Assembly: GCA_013001705.1 (NCBI GenBank)
Contig: JABDLZ010000293.1
Span: forward strand, 1-34,005
DNA from: Flavobacteriales bacterium
GTDB taxonomy: Bacteria > Bacteroidota > Bacteroidia > Flavobacteriales_D > JABDKJ01
DNA: 34,005 nt
Direction: 5' to 3'
This document shows positions 24,802 through 28,522 of the stretch, in pieces; positions within the stretch are counted from its first letter, which is position 1; each line of letters begins with the position of its first letter. The notes under the pieces were generated by a model, which saw only the letters and a list, made by a program, of their open reading frames with translations, did no database searches and was not told the DNA's origin. The position numbers and the translations under genes were made by a program.

Positions 24802-25596
24802 ATGAAAGCCCACGAGATAGATTACACCATTGCCGGAGATGACATGCAGATCGTCTCCATCCACCTAGACCCCAATGAGACGGTAGTGGCCGAGGCTGGA
24901 GCCATGAACTGGATGCAGGACGGCATCAGTTTCACCACACGTACCGGGGATGGATCCAAGCCTGACCAAGGATTCTTTGGAAAGATCCTGGATGTGGGAA
25001 AACGCGTCATCACCGGAGAGTCCATCTTCATGACCCACTTCACCAACACAGACACGGGACAGAGGGAAGTGAGCTTTGCTGCTCCCTATCCGGGTAAGAT
25101 CATCCCGCTGGAAATGAGTGAACTGGGCGGGGAGATCCTGTGTCAGAAGGACGCCTTTCTCTGCGCAGCACATGGCACCGAGATCAGCGTAGCTTTCAAT
25201 AAGCGACTAGGCAGTGGATTCTTCGGTGGAGAAGGATTCATACTCCAGCGATTGCGCGGTGACGGCAAGGCCTTCTTGCATGCAGGAGGTACCGTGGTGA
25301 AGAAGGAATTGAACAATGAGATCATCCGTATCGATACAGGATGTATCGTAGCCTTCAGCCCGAACCTGGATTATAGTATCGAGCGTGCGGGGAATCTACG
25401 CTCTATGATCTTCGGTGGAGAAGGTCTCTTCTTGGCCACCTTGAAGGGAACGGGCACCATCTATCTGCAGAGTCTCCCCTTCTCCCGCTTGGCAGACCGC
25501 ATCCTGATGCGCGCCCCTAAAGCCGGTGGCAAGGCCAAGGGCGAAGGATCCGTATTGGGTGGATTGGGACGCATGATCGATGGAGATAATTTTTGA
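24802..25596 (+). CDS. AIM24 / TIGR00266 family protein
   Basis: A 264-aa beta-rich protein of the AIM24 family, widespread in bacteria and also found in yeast mitochondria, with no known biochemical activity. Family features include the [21 protein letters not shown]-like opening, [11 protein letters not shown], a glycine-rich turn with [29 protein letters not shown], THINGs such as VKKELNNE and [17 protein letters not shown], and the closing [23 protein letters not shown] run. No signal peptide or membrane helix is visible. It has a good candidate promoter and is followed after 31 bases by a glycine-zipper membrane peptide, which may be cotranscribed. Confidence 0.9.
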
Positions 25597-25848: not shown

Positions 25849-27588
25849 ATGTCAAAATCTATTCTTCTCTTCCTCTTGCTACTGAGTGGCCTTAGCTGCC
25901 AAGCACAGTCTTCACATATTGTGCGATCCGGTGATGTGGACATCCACTATGAGACCTTCGGTGAAGGCCCGCCTGTATTGATCATCAATGGGGGTCCGGG
26001 ATTCAATAGTCAGGGCTTTTCATCAATGGCTGAGAAGATCCAAGCAATGGGCTATCAGCCTATCCTCTTCGATCAACGAGGGACAGGACTTTCTCCAGTC
26101 ACAGAACGGAATGCCTCGACCATCAGTATGGATCTCATGGTACAGGACATGGAAGCCATCCGTCAAGATCTGGAACTGGACGAGTGGACCGTGCTCGGTC
26201 ACTCATTCGGAGGTATTCTGGCCAACTACTATGCATCCATACATCCGGAAGTATTCACCGCCATGATCCAGTCTGCATCTGGAGGCATCGACCTCAGTCT
26301 GTTGCAAACGGCCCAAAGGGATATCACGAGACACTTCACTCCATCCGAAATGGATTCTTTGAATCGTTGGAGACGGCAATTCAGAGAGGGGGATGACCTT
26401 GGGGCTCGGAGGAAATACAATCAGCTCTTTGCCAAGGCCTATGTGTATGATGAGAAGTTCATTCCTCAGGTAGCTGATCGACTGATGGAGGGGGACCTCG
26501 ATCTCAATCGCATGGTCTGGAGCGACCTCCGATCCATACCCTACGATTGCAAACCAACCTTGCAAAGTTTCTGCCGACCTGTCCTGGTCATTCAAGGCAT
26601 ACAGGATATCATCCCCCAAGCGTTGGCCTACAAGGCGGATAGCGTCTACTGCAACTCCCGCATTGTCTTTCTGGACCAATGCGGTCACTATGGCTGGCTG
26701 GACCAAGAAGAACAGTATTTCCAGTCTATCGAGACCTTTCTGGATCAGGTACATGCCCCACCATGCAGTATCTCCGAAGTCCATCCTGAAAGATTTGGAG
26801 AAGGGCTCTTGGAAGGCGATGTATTTCGAGGCTCATTCTCACCTGGCGACAGCATATTCTACTTCTTCAAAAAACTGGACCCTGTGAAGGAAGAGTATGG
26901 GATCTTTACTTCCGAGCGAACAGCTGAAGGATGGTCTACGCCTGAGCGATTGATCCTAGGCAATCCCCACTCCGACCTCTATCCCAGTCTTTCGAGAGAT
27001 GGACAGCGGATGGTCTTTACTTCCTATCGTCCACTTCCTGATTCCATGGCCCAAGAAGAGAAACCCCAGGCCTATCTCTGGTATGTGGATAAGCAAGACG
27101 GCACTTGGGGAGAACCTGTTTTCATGCATCAGGCCAATACGCTCGGTCACTACCATTCCTGGGCGGAATTCGGCTGGTACGACCGCATCTACTTCAGAAG
27201 GACCACCCCTGACTGGAGGTCACGCAGCACCCTCTTTGTACGCTGGGAGGATGGGAATTATTCCCGCCCCGAAGCTTTTAAAGAGGTCGATGTATGGATA
27301 GATCAGATGGATTCGGTTCAAGTAGTGGGTGGTTCTCCCGGTCCAAGTAGGGATTTGATCTTTCTGGATGTGGCCACACGAGACCCCGAAACAGGAAGAC
27401 GCGGTTCGGATATCTGGGTCTCTCAGAAAGTCGATGGTGAGTGGCAGGTTCCCCGGGTTCTCGAAGGAGGATTAAAAACGGATGGATACGATGTCTTTCC
27501 CTTCTATTCATCCGATGGCTATTCGCTCTACTTCAACAGGGATTTCGATGTCCTTTATTCGATTCCTCTTCGTTGTGTGTATGAGTAA
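25849..27588 (+). CDS. Secreted alpha/beta-hydrolase fused to a PD40/TolB-like beta-propeller
   Basis: A 579-aa protein. A signal peptide covers about 1-20 (SILLFLLLLSGLSCQAQ). The alpha/beta-hydrolase domain (about 25-302) has the oxyanion-hole segment NGGPGFNS (47-54), FDQRGTG, the nucleophile Ser119 in GHSFGG, Asp253 in IQGIQDIIP and His280 in CGHYGW, all as in proline iminopeptidase-like enzymes. Residues about 310-579 are beta-rich with propeller blade motifs such as DLYPSLSRDGQRMVFTSYR, GPSRDLIFLDVAT, DIWVSQKVDGEWQ and VFPFYSSDGYSLYFNRDF. The ATG at 25849 is used rather than an in-frame TTG at 25834. In prolyl oligopeptidases the propeller precedes the hydrolase; here the order is reversed. 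A peptidase role is plausible but unproven. Confidence 0.85.
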   Translation: MSKSILLFLLLLSGLSCQAQSSHIVRSGDVDIHYETFGEGPPVLIINGGPGFNSQGFSSMAEKIQAMGYQPILFDQRGTGLSPVTERNASTISMDLMVQDMEAIRQDLELDEWTVLGHSFGGILANYYASIHPEVFTAMIQSASGGIDLSLLQTAQRDITRHFTPSEMDSLNRWRRQFREGDDLGARRKYNQLFAKAYVYDEKFIPQVADRLMEGDLDLNRMVWSDLRSIPYDCKPTLQSFCRPVLVIQGIQDIIPQALAYKADSVYCNSRIVFLDQCGHYGWLDQEEQYFQSIETFLDQVHAPPCSISEVHPERFGEGLLEGDVFRGSFSPGDSIFYFFKKLDPVKEEYGIFTSERTAEGWSTPERLILGNPHSDLYPSLSRDGQRMVFTSYRPLPDSMAQEEKPQAYLWYVDKQDGTWGEPVFMHQANTLGHYHSWAEFGWYDRIYFRRTTPDWRSRSTLFVRWEDGNYSRPEAFKEVDVWIDQMDSVQVVGGSPGPSRDLIFLDVATRDPETGRRGSDIWVSQKVDGEWQVPRVLEGGLKTDGYDVFPFYSSDGYSLYFNRDFDVLYSIPLRCVYE

Positions 27589-27748: not shown

Positions 27749-28522
27749 ATGAAACTGATCTCCCATGCATGCCTCATACTCCTCATACTGAGTAGCTGCG
27801 GACAGAACACCAACGAAACACGAACAAGCGAAATGAACGAAACGAAAACAAAATCTGAAGACATCCAGTACGACTCGAGCCAGCCACTTCAGGAGTTGCT
27901 CGATGAGCGGAAAGCCAACTTTAACCGCAAGGCCAGCGATGAGAAGAAGCGGATATATGCTGAAGGAATACGATCGGTAGAGAACAGTGGAATCACACAA
28001 TCGGCCAAGCAGGTGGGTGATCAAGCCCCAGATTTCACCTTGTCCAATGCCACAGGCAAAGAAGTAACACTGAGCGAGCTCTTGAAGAATGGTCCCGTGA
28101 TCCTGACTTGGTATCGTGGAGGATGGTGCCCCTATTGCAATATCACCTTACACCGTCTCCAAGAAGAGCTTCCCCATTTCAAAGCAGCCGGTGCAGAGCT
28201 CATCGCCTTGACACCTGAGCTACCTGATAGCTCCATGAGCACAGCCGAGAAGAACGACTTGGAGTTCACCGTACTGAGCGATGTGGGCAGCCATGTGGCC
28301 CGTGACTATGGCGTACTCTTCAAACTGACCGATGAAGTGGCAACGATCTACAATGAGAGTTTCGACCTGGATAATTACAATGGGGATACAAATAGCGAAC
28401 TGCCTTTAGCAGCCACCTATGTCATCGATACCGATGGCGTGATACGCTATGCGTTCTTGGATGCAGATTACCGCAACCGCGCTGAACCCAGCGTGATACT
28501 CGAGCATTTGAACGAACTCTGA
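27749..28522 (+). CDS. Peroxiredoxin-like (AhpC/TSA) lipoprotein
   Basis: A 257-aa thioredoxin-fold protein. The N-terminus is a lipoprotein signal with lipobox LSSC (Cys17), so the protein is anchored in the periplasm or at the cell surface. After a polar linker (18-85) the redoxin domain starts at VGDQAPDFTLSNATG, and its active site WYRGGWCPYC carries Cys127 and Cys130. This CxxC form is typical of the peroxiredoxin-like family, whose members reduce peroxides or act as disulfide reductants. The upstream gap (27589-27748) shows no clear terminator or promoter. The next gene begins ten bases after its stop. Confidence 0.9.
   Translation: MKLISHACLILLILSSCGQNTNETRTSEMNETKTKSEDIQYDSSQPLQELLDERKANFNRKASDEKKRIYAEGIRSVENSGITQSAKQVGDQAPDFTLSNATGKEVTLSELLKNGPVILTWYRGGWCPYCNITLHRLQEELPHFKAAGAELIALTPELPDSSMSTAEKNDLEFTVLSDVGSHVARDYGVLFKLTDEVATIYNESFDLDNYNGDTNSELPLAATYVIDTDGVIRYAFLDADYRNRAEPSVILEHLNEL

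What the first reader, a model, noticed from the sequence alone, without database searches (positions are those of the whole stretch)
25849..27588. Alpha/beta-hydrolase followed by a C-terminal beta-propeller
A complete Ser119/Asp253/His280 triad is followed by about 270 residues of propeller-like repeats. Prolyl oligopeptidases and DPP-IV have the opposite order. A secreted enzyme with this layout could have a substrate-gating or binding propeller that evolved independently.
Basis: partly seen in the sequence, partly recalled or inferred. Interest (0 to 1): 0.5.

Follow-up and report, generated by a model that had tools for sequence, protein, structure and literature searches.

The report
Hydrolase fused to C-terminal propeller
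A bacterial enzyme of a common type carries, at its tail end, a propeller-like module that usually exists as a separate protein; this rare combination seems to have arisen at least twice, and the module probably helps the enzyme bind or dock rather than gating its active site.

Summary
Window 25849-27588 (+) is one frame of 579 residues: an alpha/beta-hydrolase (residues 1-300, Ser119/Asp253/His280), then a PD40 (WD40-like) domain with five propeller-type repeats (from 309). The order is the reverse of prolyl oligopeptidase and DPP4. The parts are ordinary. The hydrolase is 53% identical to its nearest relative found and 38-46% to ten more, all without PD40; it resembles proline iminopeptidases but misses the curated score and lacks the two glutamates thought to hold a peptide's free N-terminus. 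The PD40 half is 33% identical to a separate exported protein. Six overlapping genome surveys (79-399 genomes each) showed the full arrangement in one other genome (G418), and trees of both halves reject one origin for the two fusions. The same PD40 module is also joined to amidohydrolases and ankyrin repeats, and stands beside hydrolase genes in some genomes, so it looks like a reusable accessory module. Gating is unlikely, because the hydrolase keeps the region expected to form its own cap. No confident structural model could be made; 'propeller' rests on sequence. Verdict: a rare, recurrent combination of known families; modest interest.

The parts
25849..27588 (+). whole gene, 579 aa plus stop (ATG start; a TTG 15 bases upstream in frame is the longest-ORF start)
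25849..25908 (+). likely signal peptide, residues 1-20 (MSKSILLFLLLLSGLSCQAQ); Cys18 is not in a standard lipobox, so signal peptidase I is more likely than lipoprotein processing
   Evidence: read from the sequence; no predictor was run; lipobox rule recalled
25909..26748 (+). alpha/beta-hydrolase domain, residues 21-300, with GGPG at 48-51 and the triad Ser119 (26203-26205), Asp253 (26605-26607), His280 (26686-26688)
26272..26559 (+). region expected to form the helical cap, residues about 142-237
   Evidence: lies between Ser119 and Asp253 and aligns with relatives and with F1 iminopeptidase; that it is a cap is inferred from passages of PMC3430648
26749..26772 (+). linker, residues 301-308
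   Evidence: separate hydrolases end at residues 298-301 of the query; the PD40 profile match starts at 309. The profiles were built from pieces that I had cut at 300 and 303
26773..27570 (+). PD40 domain, residues 309-574, five repeats at 326-368, 376-426, 436-477, 492-538, 548-574
   Evidence: Pfam PD40; family profile match 309-565; family alignment; repeats placed by eye and tested

Best explanation
An exported (probably periplasmic) serine hydrolase of the iminopeptidase-like alpha/beta type, to which a five-repeat PD40 propeller, otherwise mostly a separate exported protein, was joined at the C-terminus. Shown by sequence: both domains, the intact triad, separate relatives of each half, the rarity of the fusion in the surveys, and separate origins of the two fusions found. 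Inferred: Ser119 attacks an ester or amide bond of a small substrate reached through the enzyme's own helical cap; the propeller does not cover the active site but binds a partner (protein or envelope polymer) and holds the enzyme at its place of work. The substrate is not known; a peptide with a free N-terminal proline is unlikely.
For: Both domains pass Pfam cut-offs. The hydrolase is 38-53% identical to 11 hydrolases without a PD40 domain, and no PD40 gene was found in the fetched surroundings (up to about 5 kb on a side, less where the contig ends) of the 15 single-hydrolase loci L106, L111, L112 and L114-L125. The PD40 half is 33% identical to the separate protein of L051. The same module is C-terminal to amidohydrolases (two proteins of G1114) and to ankyrin repeats (G823 and G276). 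It lies just downstream of alpha/beta-hydrolase genes in G028 (gap 186 bases) and G094 (gap 10 bases with the start taken at L060:1484). The two fusions do not share an origin: AU test p 6e-69 for the hydrolase, p 0.004 for the propeller. Neither of the glutamates E213/E245 of F1 iminopeptidase has a counterpart.
Against: No structure: both models were of low confidence. No ortholog of the fused protein was found, so conservation of the joint cannot be tested; the two held genomes of the same genus gave no match at E <= 1e-15, which would also fit a young and unimportant fusion. The neighbour evidence has no control and was hand-picked. No binding partner or substrate is known. The PD40 half is on a long branch with odd letter make-up, its third repeat is not recognised by profiles of the other repeats, and its codon use and third-position GC (0.513 against 0.573) differ somewhat from the hydrolase half; this also fits loosened constraint.
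Confidence: 0.6

Rival explanations
1. The propeller is a substrate-gating or substrate-selecting lid, as in prolyl oligopeptidase and DPP4, reached by convergent evolution with the domains in the opposite order.
For: Alpha/beta-hydrolases with propellers are known to use them so (passages of PMC3430648, and PMC11878206); the joining of PD40 to such a hydrolase happened at least twice.
Against: The region between Ser119 and Asp253 that forms the cap is retained as in 11 relatives without a PD40 domain. Most frames of this PD40 family found here are separate proteins, and others are joined to unrelated domains. A tether by one short C-terminal linker differs from the S9 layout.
Confidence: 0.15
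2. A proline iminopeptidase or other aminopeptidase of family S33 with a decorative C-terminal domain.
For: Best NCBIfam match is TIGR01250; the best profile matches to solved structures are proline iminopeptidases of the F1 type, E 1.6e-37; GGPG motif and triad are present.
Against: 92.6 bits against a cut-off of 167.65. The loop with E213 of F1 is an insertion against this family, and the residue after the catalytic Asp, Glu245 in F1, is Ile or Val in 14 of 14 rows (Ile254 here).
Confidence: 0.12
3. A chance read-through fusion, or an assembly error, without function of its own.
For: Found in one draft genome (314 contigs), with no match in the two congeners at E <= 1e-15. Third-position GC is 0.573 in the hydrolase half and 0.513 in the PD40 half, and the codon-use distance of the PD40 half (0.243) equals the highest of 13 other ORFs of the window (0.137-0.243).
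Against: Family-invariant residues are kept in both halves; GC is 0.506 and 0.507; no stop at the joint; a separate case of the same order exists in G418. The codon-use distance of the hydrolase half (0.187) lies within the range of the other ORFs.
Confidence: 0.08

Closest known systems
Prolyl oligopeptidase / DPP4 family (MEROPS S9)
   Same: alpha/beta-hydrolase and beta-propeller in one chain; serine triad
   Different: there the propeller is N-terminal with seven or eight blades and covers the active site (passages of PMC11878206 and PMC3430648); here the PD40 domain is C-terminal with five repeats, and the Pfam S9 score is 15.9, below the cut-off of 22.6
Proline iminopeptidases, F1/PIP type (MEROPS S33, TIGR01250; 1MT3, 1XRQ)
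   Same: GGPG motif, triad, cap region; the best profile match among solved structures
   Different: below the curated score; no counterpart of the two glutamates; extra PD40 domain
Separate exported PD40 proteins of about 300-340 aa (L051, L007, L066 and others)
   Same: same domain, five repeats; 18-33% identical to the window's PD40 half over 13 such proteins
   Different: stand alone with their own signal or lipoprotein peptide (as read from the sequence)
PorE of the type IX secretion system
   Same: contains a domain described as a five-bladed propeller (passages of PMC7463736); weak NCBIfam match, 25.0 bits
   Different: PorE has TPR and OmpA-like domains and no hydrolase; the cut-off of 600 bits is not reached
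Amidohydrolase-PD40 proteins of G1114 (L170, L171) and ankyrin-PD40 proteins (L130, L196)
   Same: same PD40 module at the C-terminus
   Different: different N-terminal partner

Membership tests
Prolyl oligopeptidase family S9 | N-terminal propeller before the catalytic domain | tested here: not met
   order is hydrolase, then PD40
Prolyl oligopeptidase family S9 | Pfam Peptidase_S9 gathering score | tested here: not met
   15.9 against 22.6 bits
Proline iminopeptidase family (TIGR01250) | curated score | tested here: not met
   92.6 against 167.65 bits
Proline iminopeptidase family (TIGR01250) | GGPG motif and Ser-Asp-His triad | tested here: met
Proline iminopeptidase family (TIGR01250) | glutamates that anchor the substrate N-terminus (F1 E213, E245; numbering and role recalled) | tested here: not met
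   E213 lies in a stretch that is an insertion against this family; at E245 the family has Ile or Val in 14 of 14 rows
Proline iminopeptidase family (TIGR01250) | release of N-terminal proline | not testable with these tools
   needs an assay
Alpha/beta-hydrolase superfamily (Pfam Abhydrolase_1) | gathering score and triad | tested here: met
   76.3 against 25.8 bits; triad invariant in 14 of 14 rows
PD40 / WD40-like propeller (PF07676) | gathering score | tested here: met
   35.0 against 20.9 bits
PD40 / WD40-like propeller (PF07676) | five repeats that resemble each other | tested here: met
   met across the family for part of the pairs; in the window protein itself for repeats 1, 2, 4 and 5, while repeat 3 is found only by the profile of its own position
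PD40 / WD40-like propeller (PF07676) | closed propeller fold | tested here: inconclusive
   pLDDT 45, no Foldseek match at E <= 0.001; profile search of solved structures gave nothing at E <= 0.001
PorE of the type IX secretion system (NF052230) | curated score | tested here: not met
   25.0 against 600 bits

The most novel reading that the evidence does not exclude
A hydrolase-propeller enzyme that reached a propeller-assisted active site by a route separate from prolyl oligopeptidases, by adding a five-bladed PD40 module at the opposite end of the chain, at least twice in one phylum, with the propeller selecting or presenting the substrate to the hydrolase.
Probability: 0.13. Interest if true: 0.6.

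Novelty: new variant of a known kind. Interest (0 to 1): 0.3.

Why it matters
It shows the PD40 propeller as a module that is joined again and again to the C-terminus of other exported proteins, enzymes among them. If its role were measured here, it would say what the many separate PD40 proteins of these bacteria bind, since the fused forms name enzymes that they work with.

Tried and rejected
Structure: a single-sequence job of the whole protein and of the PD40 half gave no usable model. The Foldseek search lists many propellers among the 50 of 668 matches shown, S9 peptidases and sialidases among them, but with E of 0.0069 or more and TM-scores of 0.24 or less, and is not used as evidence. 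A profile search of solved structures with the PD40 family gave no match at E <= 0.001 (best 0.1, an S9 peptidase).

Shared operon as the source of the window's fusion: not supported. None of the 15 single-hydrolase loci L106, L111, L112 and L114-L125 had a PD40 gene in the stretch fetched, and the PD40 gene of the G094 pair is not the nearest relative of the PD40 half of G418, although the hydrolases are neighbours.

Conserved place in congeners: of 13 window proteins tested, only the upstream AIM24 gene matched in G002 and G001 (76 and 78% identity), apart from a 58-residue PD40 match to an unrelated place in G002. So no empty site was shown; the G001 contig ends about 1 kb after AIM24.

Long frames that looked like fusions but are not hydrolase-PD40: L107, L108, L109 (N-terminal extensions); L148 (DUF1028) and L077 (Lumazine_bd_2); L130 and L196 (ankyrin), L170 and L171 (amidohydrolase); L172, L173 and L225 (PD40 profile only, no match to the hydrolase profile; not scanned with Pfam), and L226, L227, L228 (hydrolase at the C-terminal end of the frame). 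Not opened: other long frames in the lists, for example those of G447 (467 aa) and G257 (430 aa).

Literature: searches 'beta-propeller, proline iminopeptidase, Bacteroidetes', 'PD40, hydrolase, Bacteroidetes, propeller' (39), 'C-terminal beta-propeller, hydrolase fold, N-terminal' (75), and 'WD40-like beta propeller, PD40, periplasmic, fused' with three of four (73); also on PorE and on iminopeptidases. I saw no description of this layout in the listings or in the passages read of PMC11878206, PMC3430648, PMC7522609 and PMC7463736. I read passages only, no whole paper. The library lacks most subscription journals, so this is weak evidence of absence.

Full report
Observation. The frame at 25849-27588 (+) encodes 579 residues. 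Pfam finds Abhydrolase_1 at 41-282 (E 3.8e-21) and PD40 (E 1.3e-8, best stretch 373-395). Residues 309-565 match a profile built from PD40 relatives and the window itself. Five repeats can be placed. In cross-searches between repeats over 15 family rows, with 300 shuffles per pair, 10 of 20 ordered pairs exceed the best shuffle in more than half of the rows, 14 of 20 in at least 5 rows, and 3 in none. For the window's own repeats, with profiles that leave the window out, repeats 1, 2, 4 and 5 are found by profiles of other repeats with 0 of 1000 shuffles as high, repeat 3 only by the profile of its own position. The fold is inferred from family membership only, since the two structure jobs gave pLDDT 38 and 45.

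The hydrolase half. It is 53% identical to a hydrolase of G527 and 38-46% to ten others, all 11 without a PD40 domain; the last two rows of the alignment, from G418 and G094, are 24 and 23% identical. In a tree of 55 rows it lies inside a supported set of 14 (SH-aLRT 97) in which it alone has a PD40 domain; in a tree of 83 rows it pairs with G527 (86). The G527 protein bears another C-terminal extension, a Lumazine_bd_2 domain (25.0 bits, cut-off 22.1). The nearest solved structures are proline iminopeptidases, entry set 1MT3/1MTZ/1XRQ (E 1.6e-37); 1MTZ is named F1 aminopeptidase in PMC3430648. But the curated iminopeptidase score is missed. In the printed alignments the F1 stretch with NEF is an insertion against this family, and the residue after the catalytic Asp, Glu in F1, is Ile or Val in 14 of 14 rows. 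That these two glutamates (E213, E245) hold the substrate's N-terminus is recalled; the paper was not held. The three printed chains carry Gln for Glu at one or the other of these places, and Phe for Tyr at a third, as if mutated to test them.

The PD40 half. Its nearest relative found is a separate protein of G350 (L051), 33% identical. In a tree of 40 rows it pairs with it (99), on two long branches that the program flags as a possibly false join. Of 44 distinct PD40 frames listed (profile E under 1e-45 and under 520 aa), 41 have 244-342 residues. Some are in tandem (L132, L133, L136, L138, L140, L146). The same module is C-terminal to an amidohydrolase in two proteins of G1114, to ankyrin repeats in G823 and G276, and to stretches without a Pfam match in L073 and L206.

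How rare is the fusion? Surveys with P0001 or with the profile of the two fused proteins (A2): 395 genomes of the phylum, 399 of the order, 79 of the family of G418, 395 of the class, 114 of the order of G350, 391 of the class of G418. They overlap. A listed match that spans both domains in one frame was seen only in the window's genome and in G418 (594 aa, 22% identical over 583 columns). Limits: three candidates per genome were scored, thresholds ran from 1e-12 to 1e-40, the list is cut, and a distant hydrolase joined to PD40 would show as one half only; I opened the long frames that I noticed, not every one (Tried and rejected).

One origin or two? For the hydrolase the tree that holds the two fused proteins together is rejected (AU p 6e-69, 83 rows). 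For the propeller likewise, less strongly (p 0.004, 40 rows, with long branches in play). Both are quick trees. The G418 hydrolase pairs with the separate hydrolase of G094 (90), whose gene is followed after 10 bases by a PD40 gene, but the G418 propeller pairs with the ankyrin-PD40 protein of G823 (97). The fusions are thus separate events, and with the neighbouring pairs of G028 and G094 the two kinds of gene met more often than twice.

Neighbours. Of 44 PD40 frames listed with their neighbours, I scanned the upstream neighbour of 13 chosen by hand: L007, L008, L014, L051, L066, L067, L071, L072, L080, L131, L147, L176, L177. Three are alpha/beta-hydrolase types (L007 Abhydrolase_1/Hydrolase_4, L014 Esterase_PHB, L066 Esterase), and two are other hydrolases (L147 S41 peptidase, L176 beta-lactamase type); the other eight are not. 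L060 is left out of this count because it was found through its hydrolase. There is no control for this count, so it is a lead only.

Mechanism. Most likely an exported serine hydrolase with its own cap, acting on an unknown small ester or amide, carrying a C-terminal propeller that docks it to a partner. Shown: domains, residues, relatives, rarity in these surveys, separate origins. Inferred: export, activity, cap, docking. Gating after the manner of S9 peptidases is possible but less likely: in iminopeptidases a helical cap between strands 6 and 7 takes the place that the propeller has in DPP4 (passages of PMC3430648), and that region is present here.

Novelty. The parts are known and the arrangement is a rare variant. 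The superfamily survey PMC11878206, in the passage read, lists N-terminal propellers for the S9 clusters and a C-terminal beta-sandwich for S15, and no C-terminal propeller there.

Noticed in passing
L170:516-2792 (+), L171:810-3065 (+), genome G1114: Two amidohydrolases (759 and 752 aa) with the same PD40 module at the C-terminus; a second enzyme class with this add-on.
   Followed up: partly
L130:1477-2811 (-) in G823; L196:646-2391 (+) in G276: Ankyrin repeats followed by the PD40 module; in G823 the next gene looks like a beta-lactamase-type serine hydrolase with a C-terminal sorting tail (read by eye).
   Followed up: partly
L148:628-2592 (-), genome G142: A related alpha/beta-hydrolase fused at its C-terminus to DUF1028 (E 3.3e-72).
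   Followed up: no
L077:1066-2427 (-), genome G527: The nearest relative of the window hydrolase has a C-terminal Lumazine_bd_2 domain instead of PD40.
   Followed up: partly
L146, L140, L133, L147 (genomes G825, G791): Tandem PD40 genes; in G791 another PD40 gene (L147) lies between two S41 peptidase genes.
   Followed up: no
24802-25596: AIM24-like gene, the only one of 13 window proteins matched at its place in the congeners (76-78% identity).
   Followed up: partly
27749-28522: AhpC/TSA-Redoxin gene downstream without a match at E <= 1e-20 in G001, G002 or G003 (the tool warns that an empty answer alone shows nothing).
   Followed up: no
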